Shown: piece by piece, positions 272 through 55,400 of the stretch
Layout of the letters: each line of letters starts with the position of its first letter
How positions within the stretch are numbered: the first letter of the stretch is position 1
Source of the DNA: Apoderus coryli
Taxonomy: Eukaryota; Arthropoda; Insecta; Coleoptera; Attelabidae
Reading direction: 5' to 3'
Assembly: GCA_911728435.2 (NCBI GenBank)
Contig: OU452199.1
Coordinates: 19,106,860 to 19,170,859, forward strand
DNA: 64,000 nt
Made by a program: the position numbers and the translations under genes
Notes under the pieces: generated by a model
Database searches by the model: none
Seen by the model: the letters and a program-made list of their open reading frames with translations, nothing else
Told to the model about the DNA's origin: nothing

Positions 272-849
272 AAAAACCTGATGGTGGTTCAGATAAAAAA
301 ACGTAAGCACCACAGGGACCCCCAAATCTTGTCTACCCCTTCTAGAAAAAATTAGTAGAAGAGAGAGCCAAACACTATTTGTCATTTAAATAAAAATATA
401 TTGTATGTTAGCAAAGTTTATTAGTTATTTTAGTAATGTAGAAAAATTTACTGGATAGACATTAAACGAGTATCATCACTAAAATAACTAGTAAACTTTG
501 CTAGCATACAATATACTTTTATTTAAATGACAAATAGTGTTTGTCTCTCCCAGACAAGGAGCATATGTAAACTATTCAAGAATATTATCTAAATGACATA
601 ATGTCTATCCAGTAAATTTTTCTACATTACTAAAATTACTAATAAACTTTGCTGGCATACAATATATTTTTATTTAAATGACAAAAAGTGTTTGTCTCTT
701 TTAGACAAGAAGCATATGTAAACTATTCAAGAATATTATCTAAATGACATAATGTCTATCCAGTAAATTTTTCTAGAAGGGGTAGACAAGGTTTTGGCTG
801 TCCCTGTGGTGCTTACGTTTTTTATCTATCTGAACCAAGGTTTTTTTTT
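272..849. mobile_element. Foldback/MITE-like non-autonomous DNA element
   Basis: The ends form an imperfect inverted repeat of about 75 bp: 280-352 (ggttcagataaaaaaacgta onwards) matches the reverse complement of 765-838, including the shared stretch around gcaccacaggga and ctaccccttctaga. Inside, a unit of about 151 bp is repeated in tandem (the string actattcaagaatattatct occurs at 571 and 722). A part of the same unit lies in inverted orientation at about 367-470, so most of the element can fold on itself. It codes for no protein and would need a transposase supplied elsewhere. No clear target duplication was resolved; the superfamily is unknown. Confidence 0.7.
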
Positions 850-12012: not shown

Positions 12013-12108
12013 ATGTATTGTAATAGGAAATAAAAGTCTGACTCCACAAAATCATGATCATGATTATGATTTTGTGGAGTCAGACTTTTATTTCCTATTA
12101 CAATACAT
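12013..12108. repeat. Perfect 43-bp inverted repeat (hairpin)
   Basis: 12013-12055 is the exact reverse complement of 12066-12108, separated by 10 bases (gatcatgatt). The arms begin atgtattgtaataggaaata. The transcript of either strand would form a 43-bp perfect duplex. It may be a young foldback, a microRNA-like hairpin or a replication slip product. I see no target duplication. Confidence 0.85.
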
Positions 12109-14782: not shown

Positions 14783-14819
14783 TTAGTAACAAGACTTTTA
14801 GTTATGTTGGAAATTTGGT

Positions 14820-14897
14820 TTACACCACCATGCTTTCACCAGACGGGCCGTTTCGTTGATCCACAACTCATCAGTGGTGATCGGCAGGCAGTGTGAC
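14820..14897 (-). ncRNA. Type I hammerhead ribozyme, copy 1 of tandem repeat
   Basis: Minus strand: CTGATGA at 14874-14868, stem II GTTG/CAAC with loop TGGAT (14867-14855), GAAA at 14854-14851, stem III ACG/CGT, and the cleavage triplet GTC at 14844-14842, with cleavage expected 3' of the base at 14842. Inner stem I is TCACCA (14880-14875) with TGGTGA (14841-14836). An outer stem I helix pairs the 14887-14897 region with 14820-14830 after an internal loop. All core nucleotides are canonical. Confidence 0.8.
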
Positions 14898-15154
14898 CCA
14901 AATTTCCAACATTTACGAAGAGCTTATACTAGCACGAGAGACGAAAAGAAACAAGATGTTTTGGCGACATTTAATGTGAGGAGGCAATATGCCCGTGAAG
15001 CACAGTTCACTAACGATGACCGGACGAGAGGCAACAACTCTATTATATCCTATTGCCAACACTAGACGCGCCCTAATTCCCTGGCGGGAGGCTTTATTTG
15101 TGAATTGCTTATTACATAAAGGTACAAGACTTTTAGTTTTCTTGGAAATTTGGT

Positions 15155-15232
15155 TCACACCACCATGCTTTCATCCGAGAGGCCGTTTCATTGATCCACA
15201 ACTCATCAGTGGTGATCGGCAGGTAGCGTGAC
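15155..15232 (-). ncRNA. Hammerhead ribozyme, copy 2, decayed
   Basis: Same layout as the copy at 14820-14897. CTGATGA (15209-15203) and GAAA (15189-15186) are kept. Stem II now closes with a G-T pair, the GTC cleavage triplet is lost (the segment reads CTCTCGG), and inner stem I has mismatches. Self-cleavage is unlikely. Confidence 0.6.
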
Positions 15233-15452
15233 CCAAATTTCCAACATTTAAGAACAGCTTATACTAGCACGAGAGATGAAAGGCAACAAAATGTTTTTGG
15301 CGACACTAGTGTGAGCAGGCAATATGCCCAGTGAAACACAGTTCACAAACGATGGCCGGACGAGAAGCTCCATCATATTCTATTGCCAACACTAGTTGCG
15401 CCCGAATTCCCTCGCGGGAGGCTTTATTTGTGAATTGCTTGATACATAAAGT

Positions 15453-23480: not shown

Positions 23481-23914
23481 CCTTATGTGATAAAAAAAGT
23501 AAAAAATAAATAAAATAAATAATATAGTGGAGACGACGATTGTGTTTTCTTTCGTAATTAAAAATTCTCACAATGAGAACAATTTTGTTGTAAAATATGT
23601 AATTTGTGTGCATATTATACTTAACAAAAATTTACAACTTAAATTGTTGCGTCGAAATAAAATGCGGAAAAAATACTGACAAATATGACTCAGAAAATCC
23701 AAATTGTTAATGCAGAAAAACTAGCCAATATTTTGGGTTAAAAGATCAACCTAAAATTAGAATGAATAACGAAAACAATATAAGTATATTGAAGAAGCAT
23801 CTAACCGACCTACTAATTTGCAAGTTATATATTTATTCTACGGTTGTTGACATGTAAAATCCATATTACTATTTTATTAAATTCTTAAGCTAAGGCTCAT
23901 AAAACAATTAATTT
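23481..23914. other. AT-rich sequence, no gene seen
   Basis: Short frames only. Confidence 0.4.
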
Positions 23915-24125
23915 TTACAAAGACATGTTTTTGGCGACATCTCTCGTGCTAGCATAAGCTCATCGTAAATGTTGGAAATTTGGGTCACACTGCCTGCCGA
24001 TCACCACTGATGAGTTGTGGATCAACGAAACGGCCCGTCTGGTGAAAGCGTGGTAGTGTGAAACACATTTCCAACATAACTGAAGGTTTTGTTACTTTAT
24101 GTAACAAGCAATTCATTAATTAATT
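23915..24125 (+). repeat. Single truncated copy of the hammerhead repeat (retrozyme-like)
   Basis: This is the reverse orientation relative to 14783-15452. It matches from tttttggcgacat and ctctcgtgctagcataagct through the ribozyme to gttactttatgtaacaagca, i.e. about 200 bp of the 335-bp unit, and it crosses the monomer junction (the gttac..ctttatgtaa boundary). Crossing that junction suggests it derives from a multimeric or circular template rather than from simple duplication of one genomic monomer. It is non-coding. Confidence 0.75.
23985..24061 (+). ncRNA. Type I hammerhead ribozyme, complete core
   Basis: Core: CTGATGA (24007-24013), stem II GTTG/CAAC with loop TGGAT (24014-24026), GAAA (24027-24030), stem III ACG/CGT around GCC (24030-24038), and cleavage site GTC with C17 at 24039. 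Inner stem I is TCACCA (24001-24006) with TGGTGA (24040-24045), 6 bp. Outer stem I is TCACACTGCC (23985-23994) with GGTAGTGTGA (24052-24061), 10 bp with one G-T. The two helices flank an internal loop (TGCCGA/AAGCGT), the place where natural hammerheads make the contact with loop II. Every catalytically required base is present, so self-cleavage is predicted. Confidence 0.87.
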
Positions 24126-25327
24126 TTTAGGTCGATTAAATTTTACAAAGAAGTAGATTATTAAAACTCCAATTGAAAAGATGCCAAATGTTTTACTGCT
24201 GTAAAAAATATAATAAAGAAAAGTTTTATAGGTTGACACTAATGCGGCGCCACGCCTTTTTTCATATAAATTACTTTAGTCCATACTCTGTTGTATCTAA
24301 TAATATACTCTTATCTAAAATGCGAGCTTACAATAATACGTTGTTTATTTTATCGTTCCGTGTAAAAACAAACTGTCATCTATCAAAGAAGAGTAAATAC
24401 AAATTTTCATGTCGTGAATTTCTAGCACATTTTTACATATTTCTGCTTTTAGCAATGACGTGTTTCAATAAAAGCAATGTTAAACATGTCATGTTTTTAA
24501 AATGTTTCGATAAGAACTAGGTACGATTTATTTCAGTGTGTCGAATAAATCACAAAATGTTGTAGATATTAAACTAAATTTACGGAAAATAGAATATTTA
24601 TTTTTTTAACTATTTAATACCACAATATATTTTTTGTTCGTGCAATCTTATTGTTGTCTTACAATAATTATTAGTAGTTTCAATAATTGTAATAATTGAT
24701 AAATGAAGTTATTAATGAAAATGTATTTATAACCAAAGCTCTTGTAGAAAGGTTTAAGTTATATTTACAATTTGTTCTGTGTTTTTGCATGTATTATATT
24801 TTTTTTTTGCTATTTATTGTAATCGAAACCTATATTGGTTATAATGACGACCCTATCCGATCATAACGTTGGCTTGAGGTGTAAATAAATAAATATTGCT
24901 TATGAAACAGCATAAGGACTGCCTCGCTGAAAATTTCTGTATGTGGTAATTATTCAAAATTATACGGTTTCTCTATCATATACATACTATTTTGACAGTT
25001 AATTAATTCAAATATAATATAGGTAGAATACATAATATCTCATAAAAGTCTCTACAAACAAGTTTATTTATTTATTTATATATACAAGTAAACACATTTA
25101 TCTACATCGCACATCCCACATTTTTCTTTAATACACAATTAGGTACCTATCTTATCGACTATTTGACCCGACTATTTTTTAATTTAAAACGTTATTTAAT
25201 GTATTAACTTTTACACTATTTGGTTGTGCAGGTATAATGTCAGTGCATAACATAAATTTCGTGTGTTAGATGTGGGTAATTTAGGTAAAAAAATCGTTGT
25301 TACTTTAACCTACAAAAAGAGGGTATA
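24126..25327. other. Upstream region of the sulfatase gene
   Basis: AT-rich. It must hold the promoter and 5' leader of the sulfatase gene, but I cannot place the transcription start or any 5' non-coding exon. The longer open frame at 24173-24520 has no known domain. Confidence 0.4.
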
Positions 25328-43400: not shown

Positions 43401-46400
43401 ATACCTATAAAAAAAAAGCTTGATCAGATGTGACCTAGCTAAGTGTAACTTAGCAGGCTGGGCCATGTAATACTTATAATATTTTCTATAAAGAGATGTA
43501 ATCAGACTACTATTGCTTTTCACTTCGAAATAACAAAGCATTTTCTCCATGTCTTTTCTAATTATTTACTAACCCAACTAACTTTCTCCTTAAACTCGAA
43601 GTAAACTGATAATTTTGATCAACGTGATCTTACATTTTTCTTATAGAGGATATGCATTTACGACACGACCACCTGTAATTGGTGTGGTGAGACGGAACTC
43701 AAACTTAGATAGATGACCCAGTTATAACCCACTAAAACCTCTCCGGTGAAAGGAGCTAGCTATTTGCAGATATTCAGAACGGGAGCGTAGTCCACCGCTG
43801 CCCACAGAAGTGAGTCCTGCCTTTTGAAAGACCGATGCTATTCGCGGGATGTTCCATCAAGGAGTTGAGACCCAAATCGCTATGGATGCGGTCGTTCCTC
43901 ACATTCCATGGTGCGTCGAGTCCAACTCTGATAGCCTTATTATCTTGTACTTCCAGTTTCCAACGGAAAGACCCAGCTGCTTGTCCCCATGCTGCTGACC
44001 ATCATGATCGGTCGAATGACAGCCTTGATGAAGAGTAGCTTGCTTTTTAGTGGAATTCTGCTTTTTCTCTTGAACAGAGGCAGAACCGCATCGATAGCCG
44101 CCTGATTTTTTCCGGCCGCTCTGCTGATGTGCTTTTGGAATAGCCTCTGTCCAAAGTAGCGCCAAGGTACTTTGCCATTGGACGATTTGCACCTGTTCCT
44201 TTCTTCTTTTCCACGGATAAACTACTACTTGGCTCGTTTATTTTAATAAGCCGAGTCAAGCACAACTCGCTCATCCTGTCTGCTGCCCGCTGGAGGTGTC
44301 TGGTATTGAAATTTATTATTTTATAGCGGCTTTTATGCAAGTAAAACGCAGGTATAATAATGTATCTGTATTCTATAACGATTTTATTTAGACTGAAAAT
44401 CATACAATAGTAAATATACAACAAAAATCCTTTTTCTTATCTTAAAGAAGATATATACCTAATATGAAAAAGTGTGACATGACACGTTAGGATAGCTGAC
44501 AAAAAAAATATTTCAGTTGGTATATTATTATAAAAATAATATGTAGGTACACCTAAATAAACTTGTGAACTATTATTTCAACTTAATATTAAATTTACAT
44601 TTTTGCCTTTCGGAATCTGGTTTATTTGTTTTTGTAATTGTAATTTCAACACTCCCACTCAAAAACAAAATCAACCAATATAATATGTATTTCTATTCCT
44701 AAGACCCCAAAAAAAAATTATCATTTATTATCTCTAAGGATATAAACAGGTATAATAATTAAGATTATATATTTATAGACAACCAATTTTTTTTTATTTT
44801 TTTTTTTTTTTATAGTAAACCAATCTCAGACCTTATTTTGAGAAATTTGACTGCTGGAAGTGGCTTCGTGAACGCATCAGCCAATTGTTCACCTGTTGAA
44901 ATATATTTTAATACTATGGTATTCAATAAAATTTGTTCACGTGTAAAATGATATTTTATGTCAATATGTTTGGTTCTTTTATGATTTATGGGGTTCTTTG
45001 CTATATTTATGCAAACATTATTATCTTCAAAAATAATTATTGGTAATTGTATTTTGAAATTAATACTCTGTAATAAGTTTCTTAGCCATATAGCTTCTCT
45101 AACACATTCAAAAAGAGCCATGTATTCTGCTTCCGTTGAAGAAGCAGCTACTGAGGACTGTTGTTTGGAGTTCCACGATATTGTACAATTTCCAAAGATT
45201 TTAAATAAATAGCCTGTTGTACTTTTCCTGTTTAACTCATTATTTGCCCAATCTGAGTCAACATAGCCCTCAATCATATTGACATAATTATCGTTACGTG
45301 TATATGTTAATTTAATATCTACAGATCCCTTCACATATTTTAAAACTCTTTTCAAGCATATCCAAAGTTCTTTATTAGTTTTACTTTGAAATCTGCTTAG
45401 AATACTTATTGCAATACAAAGATCGGGTCTTGTACAAAGCATGGCATACATAAGACACCCAATTAAATTTCTGCATGGAACATTCAAATTCTGATCCCTA
45501 TTCAGTTCCTCATAATTTAATTTATTTTCTAATGGTGTATTTACAGATTTGCTTTCAGACATGATAAATTTATTTAGAACTGTTTTTAAATAATAACTCT
45601 GATCTAAAACTATAGTGTTTTCTGTTCTCATGACCCGAATTCCCAAAAAGAGTGAAACTTTGTCTAAGTCTTTCATTTGAAATTCGCTCATGAGATAATT
45701 CTTAAAGGCTGACATTGTATTTTCTTTAGCTGTACAAATTAAAATGTCATCAACATATAAAATCACATAAATATTTTTACTTATGTTCCCTTTATCTAAA
45801 AAATATAAACATGGATCAACTGATGAATTTTTAAAATTAGATTTCTTAATTGTTTGATCAAAATGCTCAAACCAACATCTAGAAGATTGTTTTAGACCAT
45901 AAATTGATTTATTCAATTTGCAAACTTTATTAATATCTGCTTTTATACCCTCAGGAATTTTCATATAGATTTCCTCATCTAAACTACCATGTAAAAATGC
46001 CGTTTTTACATCCATATGATGAACAAGTAAATTATGTTGATTTGAAAAAGCCAGTATCAGTCTAAATGTTGTGATACGTGCAACTGGTGCAAAAGTTTCA
46101 TTAAAATCGATCAAATATTTCTGACTAAATCCTTTTGCTACCAATCTTGCCTTATATTTTGTAGGATTTCCTTGTTCATCAGTTTTGACAGCAAATACCC
46201 ACTTACAGTCTACAATATTTTTGCCCATGGGTTTATTTACAATTGTCCAGGTGTTATTTAAATTAAGTGAATCAATTTCATCTTTAATGGCAGCCTCCCA
46301 CTGACAACGATCATCCCTTGTTTTAATATCATGGTAAAATTTTGGAATTGATTTTACAAGGGTTTGTGCGCATAATATATGACTGATATAAATGTCATTA

Positions 46401-49400
46401 TTTATATCTTGATCATTGTCGTCAGTGTACAGAGGTAATGGATGATTTTTGATTCTCTCACTTCGTCTTAGGTTAGAAGTTTCTGATTCATTTAATGTTT
46501 GGTGGTCCAATGGCATATTTTTATGTTCAGAATCTACTAATTTTTCCGAGTTTAAGTCGGTTTTACTAGTTTTGGGCAGGGATATTGATTCGGTGTCACT
46601 TTTAACGGGCCTAGTGACTTTGTAATTTACCTCATCAATTATTACGTCTCGAGCTATGATAAACTGCTCTTTTTCGACATCCCAAATCTTATACCCGTTA
46701 GGAACATACCCCATTAAAATACCTTTCATTGATTTTTCCTCGAATTTGGTTTTTCGATTTTTAATATGGACATAAACGGTGGAACCGAAAATTCTTAAAT
46801 TGTCCAATCTGGGCTTTTTATTATGCCACAGTTCATATGGTGTTTTGTTAACATGCAGAGCGGTGGTTGGTAAAATATTTATTAGGTAACTAGCTGTCAA
46901 GACAGCTTCACCCCAAAAAGATTTATCCAACCCCGATGTATAAATCATCGTTCTCGCCTTTTCAGTAATAGTACGATTCATCCGCTCTGCTACACCATTT
47001 TGTTGAGGAGTATGAGGTACTGTTAGATGATAAGAAATGCCCGTCTGAACATTATACCCTTTCATTTCATTTGATAAGTATTCTCCTCCATTGTCACAAT
47101 AGATGTTAACTATTTTATAATTACAGTGTGTTTCTGCTTTTGCAACAAAGTCTTTAAAAACTTTTATGACTTCTGATTTTAGTTCAATCAAATATACTAC
47201 AGTATAATGCGTCAAGTCATCTATAAATGTTACGAAATAATTTTTATTGTCGACAGTAGGAGGAGTTATTGGTCCACAAACATCAGAATGAACGATAAAC
47301 AACTGTCTTTGGATATGAGTTTTTGGTTTGGACTTTGCAAACGGTAGTCTAGCTTGTTTCCCATTTATACATGCTTCACACAATGTATTAGTTACAGGAA
47401 CAATATTATTTATATGACTGACATCTTCTACCATTTTAAAATGTTTTAATTTAAAAAACGATTGAGCACTTGGGTGCCCCAAACGTTCATGCCATTTTTG
47501 GTAGTTTTTGTTGTCAATCATATTAATTTTATTCCCATGATCTTTAGGTATTTTAAATTTTATACCTATTAAACCATTAATTGGCTCACCTGTGGCTATT
47601 GTTTCTTGGTTATGTTGAATCTTCACACCATATTCGTCGAAAATCACAACCATTCCTTTATTCTGTAGGCGCGACACTGAAATCAAATTGTATGGAACTT
47701 CAGGTATGAATAAGACATCCTCCAGCGTTCCCTTCACTCCAAGATTCGTCATTACTTCTATTGATCCTCCCTTTGTGGCTTCGACTGTTGTATTATTTTT
47801 AGCTACTGCTATTGGAATTGGTTTTGGTAAGACATGTTTCGATGAAAGGAGTTCTTCTTGGTTAACAATATGATCTGTTGCGCCGGAGTCAAGCAGAAAC
47901 CATACTTATAATAATAATAATAATAAAGACTTTATTGCAAAAAAGTATACAATAGGCGAAGTTGAGACTTAAGCCTCCTCACTTAACCTCAAACACAGAT
48001 AACGACATACACAAATTAGCAATATAATACAAAAATGAAATGAAACCACATGACGTTAAGAAAAATCAAAATTCCCTGGAAATTCCAGATATCTTCAATA
48101 AGTGATTTTGAATACAACAAAAAAAAACAACAAATATTACTAAATAATAAAGTCCTTACGCTACTTATACTAAATTTTTCAAAACATGTCTGACAGACCG
48201 CTTAAATCTATAGCCCGTCAACAATTTCACATCACCCGGTAATCTGTTGTAATATTTAGCAATAGTATAAGAAAAAGACCGTTCAAACATCGCAGTAGAA
48301 TGGAATGGTGGCGCAATTGACGATTTATATCTAATATTGACAGAATGAGCATGACCCCTAAACATTATTCTTTCATACAAATATTCGGGTTCCTTACTGT
48401 TTATGATTTTATTAAATAGTACGAGAGAGTGCAAAATTCGCCTTTCCCTCATCATAGGCCACCCCATCTCATCCAGCTTAGCACTTATTCCCCTTTGGCC
48501 CCTGCGAATACCGCTAATCAATCGTACACACGAATTCTGCATCATTTGAATTCTGTTTTCATCTGATCTCGTTAAGCATGGTCCATACACAACATCAGCA
48601 TAGTTAAATTGGGATAGAACTAAGCTATCACACAGTAACTTTTTTGTTTGGAAATTAAGTATACTGCGGTTATTATAAATTGACTTCAAATTTGCAAAGG
48701 CCCGTTTTATACAGTTGCTCACATGTTTTGTGAATCTCATATCCGTGTCGATGTACAATCCCAAGCTTTTGGCTGAGCACGAGGCCCTAAGCATGACATT
48801 ACTTACAGTGAGGTTCAAATCTTTGTATCGATTCCTGAGAGAGCTATTACCAAACAACAGCAATTCCGACTTACTCGGATTCAACTCTAACCCATGGGAG
48901 TTCGAATCATTGACAACAGTGGCCAAATCCCGATTTAAATTATCAACTTCCGCATTTAAATTCTCAGGTGAGAATGACAGATATATTTGAGTATCGTCTG
49001 CATACATATGAGTTTTGGAATATTGAATATTTTCTGTGATCTGAGCTGTAAATAGGGTAAATAGTATGGGACTCAGAATTGAACCCTGTGGCACTCCATT
49101 ATTAATGTTTTTTTCTTGAGATAAATTCCCCCCAATTTGTACCATTTGTGTGCGATTGCTTAAGTAATTTTTCAATAATAATATAGAATCATTAGTGAAT
49201 CCCAAAAATCCCAGAATCGATAATAAAAGTTCATGATTCAGTCTATCAAATGCCTTACTGTAGTCCAGAAGTACCAGAGCAGTCAACTCTCCTCGGTCAA
49301 TGGCTGTAAAGATATCGTCTGTAATGTTTAATAACGCGGTAGTGCAACTATAATTATGCCTAAACCCCGACTGGTGTTTTGGCAATAAATTGTGAAGCTT

Positions 49401-52400
49401 TACATAGTTCTTGATCTGATCATCGAGAATGCGTTCAACAATTTTACTCAGAGACGGTAGGATGCTAATTGGACGAAGATCTTTGTATTCAGATGGACAG
49501 GAAGTCTTGGGAATTGGGATTACTCTACTCGTTTTCCATTCTTTTGGGAAGGAATTTTTTTCAATACAGTAGTTGACCAAATGAAGTATCACAGGTAGGA
49601 TAAAAGGACAGCTACGGCGCAACATATCCATGCTCACTCCGTCACATCCCACTGCATCACTCTTTATCGAATGTAATGCTTTATCTATATCATCGATAGA
49701 AACCAGCTTAAAATGAAAAGTACCAGCTTTCGGACTATGATTGCTTCTATAATAATTGATCTTCTCCGGATCAGGATGTCTGATTGGGATATTTACAAAA
49801 AAATCGTTTATTTTGTCTGGATCGTTAAGTGAATCGGGGATTTTAAAAGTTTCTTTACCATAAACATTCAAATTTTTTAGGAGTCTCCAGTTTTCTCTAG
49901 AATTATTATATTTCATTTGATTTTCCAGATATTTTTTTTTCAATCGATTAGTTTCTGTTGTTAACAAGTTTCTAATAAATCTATAATTTTCCCAATTTTC
50001 GGGAGTTCTAGACTTTTTGTATTTACTTAGAAATTTGTTTCTTTCTTTTTGCAAGTTTTCAAAATCGTTTGTGATCCACGGGGCTTTTCGTTTAGTTACC
50101 CTAACGGTGCGAATTGGTGCATGACGGTCAAAAGTATTCAATAAACGGTTGTTTTCTTATCTATATCATTTTCATAAAAAATATCGTAAAAGTCCTGATT
50201 TGATAGATCTTCAGAAAATAGATCTTGATTAAAATCCTTAAAGTCGCGGTAAGTATGATAAAAAGGTCTTGGTTTTGTATGGGGTAACAAGTGGAATTGA
50301 CAAAGTGTAGGTGCATGATCTGAAAAATCAGTTGAGTTATCCACCCGGGGATTACCAAAATGCTTATTATTCGAACAAATAATTAGGTCGAGCAACGATG
50401 AGCCTCTAACACCATACCTAGTTGGTTCATCAATCAATTGTTTTAAATTATAATCATCTAAAATTCTTAAAAATCTATGTGTATTATCAGAATTCAGATC
50501 CAAAATATTTATATTGAAATCCCCAATACACAAGAAGTTTTCACAGTCCATCAAAGCTCTACAAATATTTGACTCAAATTCATAAATAAAATCTGATATG
50601 CTATTACCTGGTGGCCTGTATAAAATTCCCATAATATTATTTATTTTATTCATTTTGAAACTTATCCATAGTTGTTCAGAGGAAAGTGTATCGAAATCTG
50701 TCAAAACCTTGAAATCAATTGATAGCCTGATGTAGGCCAGCACTCCACCACCACGATGATGATTACGATCTCGTCGAAGTAGCCTATAACCATTTATATG
50801 TAATGAGTCATCAGATATACTATCTGTCAGCCATGTCTCACTAACACCCACAATGTCAAAGTTGTTGCGCAATACATATTCTCTAAAATCTATAAATTTA
50901 GGAACAATTGATCTTATATTAATATGCATAATACTCAAATTAGCCATCTCTAAATAATGTAAATTAATAGACTATGCTTATAAAACTTATATATTATGTA
51001 CATACATTATTAAGTACCTGATCCCATTAATACATCTATTTGACTGCGAAACTTAATTTTAATAACATTTTCTCCATCATTCTTTCTAACATACACAGCG
51101 CCATTCTTGCACCACACATACTTATATCCATTTTCTCTGAGTCTTCGAGCTTCCTTAAATAAATCTCTGGTAGCCTTTGGGATATCCTCATTAATAAATA
51201 CTTTGCGCAAATTGCCAATCTGTATGTTGCATGAATCCAAGTCCAGGCGCTTTCCCTTTTTTTGAATCATAACCCTGTTTCGTTTTTCTTCTTCAGAAAA
51301 TGACACCAAAACTGGTTTTCTATTCGTGTTGCTTGTGAGAACTTTCACAGTATAGTCATTTTCATCCACATCCACATTCAAATGCGCAAACACTCTGCCG
51401 ACATCCGCCTTCACATTCTTATCACCGGAAAGTCCAACTAATACAACGTTTTTCTTGCGCTGTTCAACCTCGACATCAATAGAGATCTTACGCAATTCAC
51501 TGACCTCCTTTTCTAGTTCGTCGACACGACCAGTTAATGCAACATGATCCCTTTTTAGTTTTTTGTTCTCTTTGATGATATCACTTATTGATGCTTTAAG
51601 GTCCTCCACCATAGCTCCTGTGAAGGTGACTGATTGCTTCAACTCCTCAAACATGCCCTTCATGGCCCTTAGTAGCTCGCGATTGGAGGGACTTTTGACA
51701 GCAAATACGTTTTCAAATCTTTGTGAGATTCTACTATATCCCGCCTGAGTATGTGGTGTATGAGAAGGCAAAACCAGAAGTTCATCATCATCCTCATCTT
51801 CACCTTCTTCTTCTGAAGATATTCTGCAGGTCGCGCAAAGCCACTTTTTTTCACCTTTACTCCTTTCAATCGCCCTAAATTGGTCATCCGTAAGTCCAGA
51901 ACATGATTTATGGACCCATCGTTGGCATTCACCAGAACATAGAATTTTATGCGATGATTTTGCAATTGTTTGTTTGCAAAAAGCACAGATGATCTTTTTA
52001 TTCGTCATAATGGTACTTATAGAACGTCTCCGTATTGAACAATATGAACAAATTTATCAGTATTTGAATAGGTAGCTGTAGATACACTTTTATTTATCTT
52101 ATTTCTACTGCTATTACTATTTTATTCAGGAGCATAAAAAATATTCAAAGATTTTACAACAGTCATACATCACTCAAACGAAAACTGCACCACTTTAAAT
52201 GCACAAAATTTTTCTGCCCGTAACAAGATAAAAATCACAGAAATCGGCACTGTATAACAGGTAAAAATCAATTTTTAGTCGGACGAAAAAGTGTGTGTAT
52301 GTCTAGATAGTCTGTTAATTTGAATTGATTTGAATTCTTTAGCTGCTTGATCAGTCTGCTCCCATGTTATTGCGAGATTATTTCTGAGCATGAAAGCAAA

Positions 52401-55400
52401 ACCACTTCCTTCTGATTGCGTGCGTGTAACAGTTTGAATGGTGCGTTGTTTTTCCAGCATTTGTTTGTGGAGGTAGCAATCTTTTATTAAATGGTTGTTT
52501 CTACCACAATGCTCGCATTTCATATTAGATAATTTAGATGCATCTTTTATTGCCCTTTTAAATTTTCCTTTATTGTGAGGAAATTTCTTTCTTTTATTTT
52601 GTTTTTGACCAAATGCTGAGGAATCATGTTTGGATGAGGAGCCTCTGAATGTGTTTAGCACTTTAAAGCTTGTGGTAGTATTGTCGTTTTTGAGCTTTAC
52701 TTCTTGATCTAGTAATCGTGTTTTCACAAATGACAAATTTAAATTGTCTTCTCCTAAGGTTTCCAATGCAGTGATTACACCTTCATAAGCGGATGGCATT
52801 GTTAGAAGGACATGTGAAATTTTGTCCATTTCATCTAATTTAGCTCCCGCTGCCAGTAATTCCGTGATGATGTCATCAAAAATTATAAAGTGTTGTACCA
52901 ACTGCTGATCTCCACGGAACTTAAGGTTAAGAAGTTTTTTACGTAATGCCAATTGCGTAGCTAAACTTCTCCTTTCATAAATTGCATCCATATCAGCAAA
53001 AACATCACGAGCAGTCGGTTTGTCCTTAACAAAGTTCAGGAATGAGTCACTGAGATATTCTGTGATAATTCCCTTTGCATACACGTCATGCCTTTTCCAT
53101 CTACTGTCGGGTTCAGCAGGAGGTGCTTCCTCAACTACATAAAGTACTTGCGCTTCTGCTAGTAATAGCTTAACACGAAATTTCCAAATACTATATTTTT
53201 CGCCGTTAAACGGTTGAACGTTTCTTGGTTTAGTTTTCTCCATTATAGGAAGTTAAACGGCACTGAGCACTTGAATAATACACGTTCGCGGCACTGGCTA
53301 ATGTTAATTAATTAATTAATAATTATCACCAATTTAAACAAACGTATACAATCCACTATTTACTATACGCGAATACTGAGCTCATAACCTATTGAAATTT
53401 ATTATTTTATAGCGGCTTTTATGCAAGTAAAACGCAGGTATAATAATGTATCTGTATTCTATAACGATTTTATTTAGACTGAAAATCATACAATAGTAAA
53501 TATACAACAAAAATCCTTTTTCTTATCTTAAAGAAGATATATACCTAATATGAAAAAGTGTGACATGACACGTTAGGATAGCTGACAAAAAAAATATTTC
53601 AGTTGGTATATTATTATAAAAATAATATGTAGGTACACCTAAATAAACTTGTGAACTATTATTTCAACTTAATATTAAATTTACATTTTTGCCTTTCGGA
53701 ATCTGGTTTATTTGTTTTTGTAATTGTAATTTCAACATCTGGTGACCATCCTCGGTTGTGTGCTTCTTTTAAAAAGTGCGGTGTCGTCCGCCGGCAAACT
53801 GTGCAATGATCATCTGATCCGTGCGTGGTATGTCACTCCTGTAGACTGTGAAAGTTGAGGTGACAGAAAGGAGCTCTTGGCACCCCTGCCTTTATCTCGC
53901 GAGTATCTGAAATTCACACCGAACCGCACTCGGAAGGTTCGATCCTGCAGGTAGCTGTCTATCAATTGGAGTTGTATTACACAGCGATGCATCACTATTT
54001 ATATGCTCTTAAAATTCTCGTACGCTGCCTGCACACTGGGAGGTATTATAGTAAATATAGCCAAATTCTCTATAACCTTTGCAGTTCGAAAACCATTATT
54101 ATCAAGAATCAACATCAATTTAATTAAAGGACTTCATAAAAGATAATATGGCAATTTCTTTTCAGGAATTTTACAAATTTGGATGGTATGAGCATTTGGG
54201 AATCATTATCAACTAATCGCAAGTCTCCAAGAGAAGAAATTCTGCATAATATTGATGATGAATATGGCAACGCAGCATTAACTATTGGAAAATGGAAACT
54301 TATTAAAGGTGTGTTTTATTCTATCTAAGTTTATCAGTCAGGAGAGATATTAATTATATAGATATTTGATTTAAATTACAGAATAACTTAAGTTTATTTT
54401 ATTAGGAGATACTTACAACAACACATGGGCTGGTTGGTATGGACCGTCAGGACGATCAGGCTCACTCAGTTACAATACGAGCGCACTTACAAACTCACCA
54501 GTATATTTAGCACTAAAATCCTTAGGAAAAGATATACCGTTAGATGAAATGCTAACCCTTCGTGAAAAGGCAACTCTCGTGTGTCAAAACACCACGTCTG
54601 ATATAGAGTGCAAACCATTGGAAGCTCCATGTTTATATGACATTATCAACGATCCCTGCGAATTAAGAAATTTAGCATCACAGTGAGTATAATATATTTT
54701 TTTTACGAGCGTGCGGTAAAGTGTATTTTTCCGCATATTTTTAGTGCGGAAACTTGCACTTTTCCGCACTCAGTGCTGTAATAGTATATTACATAACGTG
54801 TGCTGTAAATGATATTTTATTATTTCATTTTTTTGTCAACTTTCCCTTAAGGCCCACGCGAATTTTAAACGTAAAATAATTTATTAAGTCAATTGGAATG
54901 GCAAAGACAACAAAGTCGCCGCGCGGCTTGCGGCGTTTTACAAAAGACTAATGGCGGCGCTTTGTTTATTATGCTGGCGCGGTGTTTTACTGTATCGACA
55001 AAAGATGCCGAAAACACCACCACTTATTCCTCAGTGAAGTAATATACCTATTTGGCATCGAATATTAACTGTAGATATACGAAGGTTCAGTGGACGCTGA
55101 AAACGGCATCGACTCGTCGCATACCCAGCCACATTTCTGGCCCGCTACTATATATTCTATATATACTATAAGATACTACTACTATAACTTTAAGCTTTGT
55201 AGACATGAATAGCAATCGTATTGACACGAGGTGAAGTAACTGTATATTATTTTAAACTGTGTATTTGGTCCTTATTTTTGTTTTATTTATTATAATAATT
55301 TTATTGTGAAGTTTATACTTGTTGATTGTTCTTTTTAGTTTAATTATTATTTTGCGATATTATGTTTTTGTTTTTAGTGTTTAACTGTTGTTTTACATTA

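What the first reader, a model, noticed from the sequence alone, without database searches (positions are those of the whole stretch)
14783..15452. Head-to-tail dimer of a 335-bp ribozyme repeat: a candidate insect retrozyme
Two monomers with the same period (core at 14868 and 15203) and a hammerhead in each, none coding. Animal retrozymes are known as short tandem repeats with type I hammerheads whose RNAs become circular. The first copy's core is canonical while the second has lost its cleavage site, so a precursor could be cut only once unless other copies are intact. A separate copy at 23915-24125 crosses the monomer junction, as expected of insertion from a circular or multimeric template.
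Basis: partly seen in the sequence, partly recalled or inferred. Interest (0 to 1): 0.9.

Follow-up and report, generated by a model that had tools for sequence, protein, structure and literature searches.

The report
Retrozyme that inserts as a palindrome
The repeat is an old copy of a ribozyme-carrying jumping element whose younger copies elsewhere in the genome look as if they were written into the DNA from both sides of a cut, starting at two fixed places on a small, probably circular, RNA.

Summary
In detail: 14785-15451 (minus strand) is a head-to-tail dimer of a 335-nt unit with a type I hammerhead core in each copy. The first core is intact, the second degenerate; the units differ by 13.8%. 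It is an eroded member of a dispersed family, not a local satellite.

The new result concerns the family. Of 65 loci examined I read 64 end to end. Complete insertions are palindromes: two arms of the unit head to head, ribozyme strand pointing outward, up to about 10 laps per arm. In 41 loci both outer ends fall on fixed sites; all 41 have one end at site A (u74-86) and the other at B (u228-242), none A/A or B/B. Exact target-site duplications of 11-15 bp flank 40 of 41, and empty sites were found for 4 of 6 tried. Sibling arms carry the same sequence variant. A and B lie in the two longest unpaired runs of the predicted circle.

Seven Penelope-like GIY-YIG pairs of the same assembly, picked as divergent pairs, are also palindromes; six have exact 12-bp duplications, five a tail on one end only. 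Best reading: an animal retrozyme inserted by Penelope-type machinery priming from both target ends on a multi-lap, probably circular, template.

The parts
14785..15451 (-). Head-to-tail dimer of the ~335-nt retrozyme unit (1.97 laps), old and eroded, ribozyme on the minus strand; no target-site duplication recognised
   Evidence: Wraparound alignment, 85% identity to the family unit; units differ by 13.8%; best duplication score 4
14842..14874 (-). Hammerhead core of the first copy, intact; predicted cut after the C at 14842 (minus strand)
   Evidence: CTGATGA...GAAA...GTC on the minus strand
15177..15209 (-). Hammerhead core of the second copy, degenerate around the cleavage site
   Evidence: Sequence printed
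23918..24117 (.). Small complete two-armed insertion of the same family
   Evidence: Arms and duplication
23918..23941 (-). Short B-side arm of that insertion (u209 to about u228)
   Evidence: Local alignment score 32 to an old unit against at most 21 in 300 shuffles
23942..24117 (+). A-side arm of that insertion (from u241 through the ribozyme to about u78; the alignment itself runs on to 24123, u83, into the duplication)
   Evidence: Wraparound alignment, 91% identity
24007..24039 (+). Hammerhead core of that insertion, intact
23906..23917 (.). Left copy of the 12-bp target-site duplication AATTAATTTTTA
24118..24129 (.). Right copy of the 12-bp target-site duplication

Best explanation
The dimer is an old copy of a non-coding, non-autonomous hammerhead retroelement (an animal, non-LTR retrozyme). 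Transcripts are cut by the hammerhead to units of about 337 nt and closed into a circle (inferred from known retrozymes). A Penelope-like reverse transcriptase with GIY-YIG endonuclease makes a staggered cut of about 12 bp in AT-rich DNA (enzyme inferred). The two target 3' ends prime reverse transcription at two different fixed single-stranded places of the RNA, A on one side and B on the other, with help from short microhomology. Each synthesis runs from a fraction of a lap to many laps. The two cDNA ends are then joined at a variable point. The product is a head-to-head palindrome with one A end, one B end and a target-site duplication. Shown here: the palindromes, the A/B rule, the duplications, empty sites, the near-identity of laps and arms, and the same architecture in GIY-YIG elements of the same assembly. 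Inferred: the circle, the enzyme, and that both arms use one molecule.
For: Two-armed palindromes with outward ribozyme strands in 48 of 64 loci; 41 of these have both ends on the fixed sites and all 41 are A/B, none A/A or B/B (individual loci). Exact duplications of 11-15 bp in 40 of 41; 23 displaced control flanks scored at most 8 against 9-15 in the 34 loci tested alongside. Empty sites identical over 54 nt (L019, L028) and 52 nt (L051), and with 1 mismatch in 55 (L034). Microhomology between duplication and unit: mean 2.8 nt at A (39 loci), 1.9 at B (15 loci), control 0.46. Sibling arms identical in 23 of 32 loci against 110 of 2888 between-locus pairs (loci up to L057). 101 of 106 lap polymorphisms lie in a single lap. 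The core pattern is intact in 247 of 260 ribozyme copies. A and B fall in two of the three unpaired runs of 8 nt or more in the circular fold of the family unit. GIY-YIG domains abound (150 scored of 1260 candidates); 7 of 7 fetched divergent pairs are palindromes, 6 of 7 with exact 12-bp duplications, 5 of 7 with a tail of about 31-33 nt on one end only. An anole Penelope enzyme cuts and extends both strands and starts at two internal sites (PMC11167929).
Against: No circle was seen; only DNA was available. In 7 of 48 two-armed loci one or both ends lie elsewhere (L010, L014, L032, L036, L040, L045, L070), and one one-armed locus (L071) has only a B end. Ten single-lap differences separate arms in 6 of 33 loci (L010, L025, L041, L052, L056, L057); they read as later mutations but two templates cannot be excluded there. 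L010 has four lap variants present in several laps and L022 one, and 8 minor variants are polymorphic in two loci each. Both ribozyme copies of L016 fail the core test, so a template with a dead ribozyme was apparently copied. The anole enzyme showed no difference in start site between strands (PMC11167929), unlike the strict A/B rule here. The retrozyme shares no recognisable sequence with the two Penelope families seen. Structure support by covariation is weak: 2 of 96 pairs; the fold of the diverged unit L042 differs. The Penelope pairs were chosen because they diverge, so their being palindromes is not an independent test.
Confidence: 0.66

Rival explanations
1. Same two-ended insertion, but the template is a linear multimeric transcript of an already homogeneous array, not a circle.
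For: Array sources with identical laps exist (for example L019, L024, L034), so lap identity alone does not prove a circle. L010 and L022 hold variants shared by several laps. L016 was copied with a dead ribozyme in both copies. The one-armed locus L059 ends exactly at u1, the predicted cut site.
Against: 101 of 106 lap polymorphisms are single-lap: a linear multimer of an ageing array would pass its lap differences on. Arm ends at the centre do not gather at the cleavage site: 5 of 82 within 5 nt against 2.7 expected. Known animal retrozymes make circles (PMC7229834).
Confidence: 0.22
2. Two-ended priming by another endonuclease/reverse transcriptase, such as a LINE, with the Penelope resemblance coincidental.
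For: LINE reading frames are present in the window (by my reading of the frames listed), LINE inserts can have duplications of this size (15 bp for human L1 in the abstract of PMC4245944), and no sequence links the retrozyme to the Penelope families seen.
Against: Head-to-head palindromes with a longer end on one side and 12-bp duplications are what the Penelope elements of this very assembly show. Twin priming of LINEs (recalled) does not predict a second fixed site B on the inverted arm.
Confidence: 0.09
3. Self-priming: one cDNA snaps back at its end and copies itself, as proposed for inverted Penelope copies in Adineta vaga (PMC3846280).
For: Turning points lie within 16 nt of each other in 8 of 41 loci against 4.0 expected, p 0.04.
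Against: A snap-back arm would mirror the first arm and end at the same site; instead all 41 have different ends, arm lengths are only weakly related (Spearman 0.28, p 0.08), and turning points are mostly far apart.
Confidence: 0.04
4. A foldback-type DNA transposon whose inverted repeats are built of subrepeats.
For: Long inverted repeats made of tandem subrepeats resemble such elements (recalled).
Against: The two termini are different parts of the unit; duplications vary from 11 to 15 bp; one-armed insertions with duplications exist (L059, L060, L065, L066); the repeat carries a conserved ribozyme.
Confidence: 0.02
5. Palindromes are assembly or library artefacts (folded-back reads).
For: Long palindromes are a known artefact of long-read libraries (recalled), and no reads were available.
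Against: Exact duplications and identical empty sites elsewhere in the assembly, and the A/B rule, are not expected of fold-back artefacts.
Confidence: 0.02

Closest known systems
Animal non-LTR retrozymes (Cervera and de la Pena 2020, PMC7229834; parts 1-4 of 6 read)
   Same: Non-coding tandem unit of 170-400 nt with a type I hammerhead, G+C below 50% (here 44%), dispersed copies, duplications larger than 4 bp, highly paired predicted circle, co-existence with Penelope elements carrying minimal hammerheads.
   Different: Insertions here are palindromes with two different fixed ends. The paper describes tandem copies from dimers to large multimers and a general model of circle reverse transcription; inverted arms are not described in the parts read. 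RNA was not tested here.
Penelope-like elements (PMC3846280, passages; PMC11167929, parts 1-2 of 4)
   Same: Inverted copies, a longer end (tail) on one side, AT-rich targets, short duplications, hammerheads, two internal reverse-transcription starts and extension of both target strands in the anole enzyme.
   Different: The retrozyme has no protein gene and shares no recognisable sequence with the two Penelope families seen here. Its two starts are about 157 nt apart one way round the unit and 180 nt the other, against 30-40 bp for the Penelope tail.
pDo500 satellite of Dolichopoda cave crickets (PMC2837043, passages)
   Same: Hammerhead in each repeat of an insect tandem repeat.
   Different: Described as a satellite with repeats of 463-505 bp; the stems transpos, inverted and circular do not occur in that text.
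Newt and axolotl hammerhead repeats (in PMC7229834)
   Same: Repeat of about 330 bp and a weak stem III with a palindromic loop (here GGCC), which in the axolotl works better as a dimer.
   Different: No sequence comparison was made here.

Membership tests
Animal non-LTR retrozyme | Type I hammerhead in each repeat | tested here: met
   Rfam Hammerhead_1 at 32.3 bits, E 9.3e-5, slightly under the gathering score of 34, in 8 units of L024; core pattern in 247 of 260 copies
Animal non-LTR retrozyme | Short non-coding unit of 150-450 bp, in dimers to multimers, low G+C | tested here: met
   337 nt, G+C 44%; arms up to 10.4 laps; no frame over 87 codons between stops over the window dimer
Animal non-LTR retrozyme | No LTR, dispersed copies with target-site duplications longer than 4 bp | tested here: met
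   11-15 bp exact in 40 of 41 A/B loci; empty sites for 4 of 6 loci tried
Animal non-LTR retrozyme | Expressed as circular RNA | not testable with these tools
   No RNA data available
Animal non-LTR retrozyme | Self-cleavage activity | not testable with these tools
   Core and stems are present; activity needs an assay
Mobilised by Penelope-like machinery | GIY-YIG Penelope-like elements present in the genome | tested here: met
Mobilised by Penelope-like machinery | Same insertion architecture: head-to-head arms, unequal ends, about 12-bp duplication | tested here: met
   7 of 7 chosen pairs palindromic, 6 of 7 with exact 12-bp duplication, 5 of 7 with one-sided tail
Mobilised by Penelope-like machinery | Shared end sequence with an autonomous Penelope family | tested here: not met
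   No similarity beyond chance to the two families fetched; other families were not fetched
Local satellite DNA | Copies confined to local arrays | tested here: not met
   Dispersed over many contigs with duplications
Penelope-like element (autonomous) | Encodes reverse transcriptase and endonuclease | tested here: not met
   The unit is 337 nt and non-coding

The most novel reading that the evidence does not exclude
A Penelope-type enzyme works as a pair on a single ribozyme-made RNA circle. Two single-stranded start sites that face each other in the circle are handed one to each end of a staggered cut, and both polymerases follow each other around the same circle, often for several laps, before the two cDNAs are joined. 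This would explain the strict A/B rule and the identical arms together.
Probability: 0.45. Interest if true: 0.86.

Novelty: new variant of a known kind. Interest (0 to 1): 0.73.

Why it matters
Which enzyme moves animal retrozymes, and whether the RNA circle is the template, are left open in the parts of PMC7229834 that I read, which call Penelope elements a strong candidate. The palindromes give a genomic signature that ties retrozymes to Penelope-type insertion and name the exact start sites. They also offer a different explanation (priming from both target ends) for the inverted copies and one-sided tails of Penelope elements, which were read as self-priming in PMC3846280. Both become testable with one enzyme, one circular RNA and a short target.

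Tried and rejected
Rejected readings: local satellite, foldback DNA transposon, snap-back copying, LINE twin priming, assembly artefact (reasons under the rivals).

Led nowhere or went wrong: Rfam on the whole window at E<=1 found no hammerhead. Looking for shared sequence between retrozyme and Penelope ends gave nothing beyond chance. The covariation test was uninformative because the 15 units chosen are too alike. A first mapping script reported tails of masked matches as hits and was replaced. A first arm comparison compared no positions because of a data-type error and was repeated. The centre joins are not uniform along the unit (KS p 0.0016, Rayleigh p 0.007) and I have no explanation. 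Equal arm lengths as in L024 (1389 and 1388) are not a rule. Host identity was not pursued beyond one search: the best COX1 match lies on C129 with 9 in-frame TGA, which fits animal mitochondria but names no species. PMC4209133 is not held. A second duplication candidate for the window copy exists.

Limits: the loci are the best matches of two searches, each of which scored only 39 or 40 of its candidates and whose listings say that more matches are not listed, so the sample leans to long and young copies and the copy number is unknown. Arm and haplotype comparisons cover loci up to L057 only. That palindromic retrozyme insertions are not in print rests on searches of the held open-licence library and on the passages read; subscription papers were not seen.

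Full report
Observation. The dimer is real. It lies on the minus strand at 14785-15451, with hammerhead cores at 14842-14874 (intact) and 15177-15209 (degenerate). Its two units differ by 13.8%, so it is old, and no target-site duplication can be recognised (best score 4). A second copy, 23918-24117, is flanked by a perfect 12-bp repeat found nowhere else in the window. Its right arm is the unit from u241 to about u80 on the plus strand. Its left arm is a scrap of 24 nt, u209 to about u228 on the minus strand, scoring 32 against at most 21 in 300 shuffles. It is thus a small complete insertion of the kind described next.

Sample. A search of the window's own assembly (428 Mb, 129 contigs, unnamed) with the dimer gave 151 matches from 39 scored of 3635 candidates. 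I fetched the 38 clusters I recognised in that listing and the 26 further clusters of a second search with a young unit (177 matches from 40 scored of 1547 candidates). With the window's own locus these are 65 loci. One (L013, 83% identity) fell under the identity filter of the end analysis, leaving 64. A majority unit of 337 nt from 125 tandem units served as a ruler; u1 is the first nucleotide after the predicted cut.

Architecture. Complete insertions are palindromes: a left arm on the minus strand and a right arm on the plus strand, so the ribozyme strand reads outward on both sides. Arms hold from 0.1 to 10.4 laps. Of 64 loci, 48 have two arms. In 41 of these both outer ends fall on A (u74-86) or B (u228-242), and all 41 have one of each. 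The other 7 have one or both ends elsewhere: L014, L032, L036, L040 and L070 have an A end, L010 a B end (its far part, beyond a 187-nt interruption, ends at u81), L045 neither. Of 16 one-armed loci, 14 have an A end, one (L071) a B end, and the last is the window dimer. In two of the 14 (L018, L020) a tiny B-like arm is visible by eye next to the duplication. A therefore looks like the primary site and B the secondary one; that is an inference.

Insertion. Exact duplications flank the 41 A/B loci: 12-15 bp in 39, 11 bp in one, 8 bp in one (the last is L016, which has 12 bp with one mismatch). Displaced control flanks gave at most 8 in 23 trials against 9-15 in the 34 loci tested with them. 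The duplications are 88% A+T. Their inner ends continue the unit by 2.8 nt on average at A (39 loci) and 1.9 nt at B (15 loci), control 0.46, which suggests priming by microhomology. For six loci I joined the flanks and looked for the empty site among the fetched loci: found identical for L019 and L028 (54 nt, in L039) and L051 (52 nt, in L037), with one mismatch in 55 for L034 (in L031), not found within 8 mismatches for L047 and L031. So whole palindromes are single insertions.

Template. In young loci laps of one arm differ by 0 to about 1.4%, in the old ones (L001, L009, L013, L042, L045) by 6.5 to 22%. Arms of different loci differ by a median of 1.8%. Sibling arms are identical in 23 of 32 loci, against 110 of 2888 pairs from different loci; the largest sibling distance is 2.5% (L010). 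Among 33 loci there is no site at which both arms, each read at least twice and uniform, differ; ten differences in six loci rest on a single lap of at least one arm. Of 106 lap polymorphisms 101 occur in one lap only; four in L010 and one in L022 do not, and 8 minor variants recur in a second locus. Both arms therefore mostly come from one sequence laid down by repeated passage over one unit. A circle is the simplest such template and is known for animal retrozymes (PMC7229834, parts 1-4 of 6). A homogeneous linear multimer is not excluded, and L016, whose two ribozyme copies both fail the core test (the copy shown reads CTGATAA), counsels caution.

RNA. One young unit folds better than all 100 shuffles (z -6.1). 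In the circular fold of the ruler only three runs of 8 or more nt are unpaired: u70-87, u217-246 and u318-328 in the ribozyme. The first two contain A and B and lie in one multiloop at the base of the long arm that carries the ribozyme. The folds of L034 and L028 keep these loops, that of the diverged L042 does not, and that of the window unit only in part. Covariation is weak (2 of 96 pairs). So the geometry is a prediction.

Joining. The centre is joined without extra nucleotides in 26 of 41 loci; the others have 1 to 22 nt, and L058 has 1290 nt of other sequence. Ends at the centre do not gather at the cleavage site (5 of 82 within 5 nt, 2.7 expected). They are not uniform along the unit either, which I cannot explain.

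Partner. GIY-YIG domains are abundant: 150 scored of 1260 candidates, with curated cut-off passed. By eye I see 18 pairs within 5 kb in that list, all diverging, minus on the left and plus on the right. I fetched seven. All seven are inverted repeats, as expected from how they were chosen. Six have exact 12-bp duplications; for L079 none was found. In five, one end carries a tail of about 31-33 nt that the other lacks (L073, L074, L076, L077, L078); L075 has one normal and one truncated end. Minimal hammerhead-like cores lie near the ends of six. Rfam scores those of L077 at 18.3 bits, E 3.8, far below threshold, and does not list the one in L078 at E<=5. Inverted copies with a tail on one of them are known marks of Penelope elements (PMC3846280, passages), and the anole enzyme cuts and extends both strands from two internal starts, though without a strand difference (PMC11167929, parts 1-2 of 4). 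No sequence is shared between these two families and the retrozyme, so the partner family remains open.

Verdict. This is a family of animal retrozymes (membership by sequence features; circular RNA untested) with an insertion architecture that I did not find described in the searches named under Tried and rejected. It works like a Penelope insertion; that Penelope proteins do it is inferred. The dimer is an eroded member and the small copy nearby is the better witness.

Noticed in passing
L019 and L028 (C16 and C19), empty site in L039: Two retrozyme insertions sit at the same 14-bp site of two nearly identical copies (99.6-100% in the aligned flanks) of one host repeat, with A and B ends swapped relative to it and different arm lengths, as if two independent insertions chose the same site.
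   Followed up: partly
L031, L034, L070: Three retrozyme insertions lie at different positions of a satellite with a period of about 148 bp.
   Followed up: no
L058:765-2054: A retrozyme palindrome with A and B ends and a 12-bp duplication holds 1290 nt of unrelated sequence between its arms, with GTAATAG-like motifs near both ends of the filler; capture during joining or a later insertion.
   Followed up: no
L077:1793-2611: Between the arms of a Penelope palindrome lies a direct repeat (300 nt, spacing 519) with a hammerhead-like core in each copy; Rfam gives only Hammerhead_HH9 at E 0.45 and 0.93. Possibly a second retrozyme family.
   Followed up: partly
L016 (C10:7790500-7795500): Both ribozyme copies of this insertion fail the core test, so a template with a dead ribozyme seems to have been copied; dimeric or trans cleavage might explain it.
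   Followed up: no
L059: A one-armed insertion ends exactly at u1, the predicted ribozyme cut site, as if the template had been opened there.
   Followed up: no
window 12029-12092: A near-perfect hairpin resembling mir-60 at 32 bits, well below the family's cut-off of 67; probably a small inverted-repeat element.
   Followed up: no
window 474-775: Two-copy tandem repeat with a 151-bp unit, 93% matches.
   Followed up: no
window 44813-53252: Long open frames of mobile elements on the minus strand, by my reading a Copia-like polyprotein and LINE-like frames.
   Followed up: no
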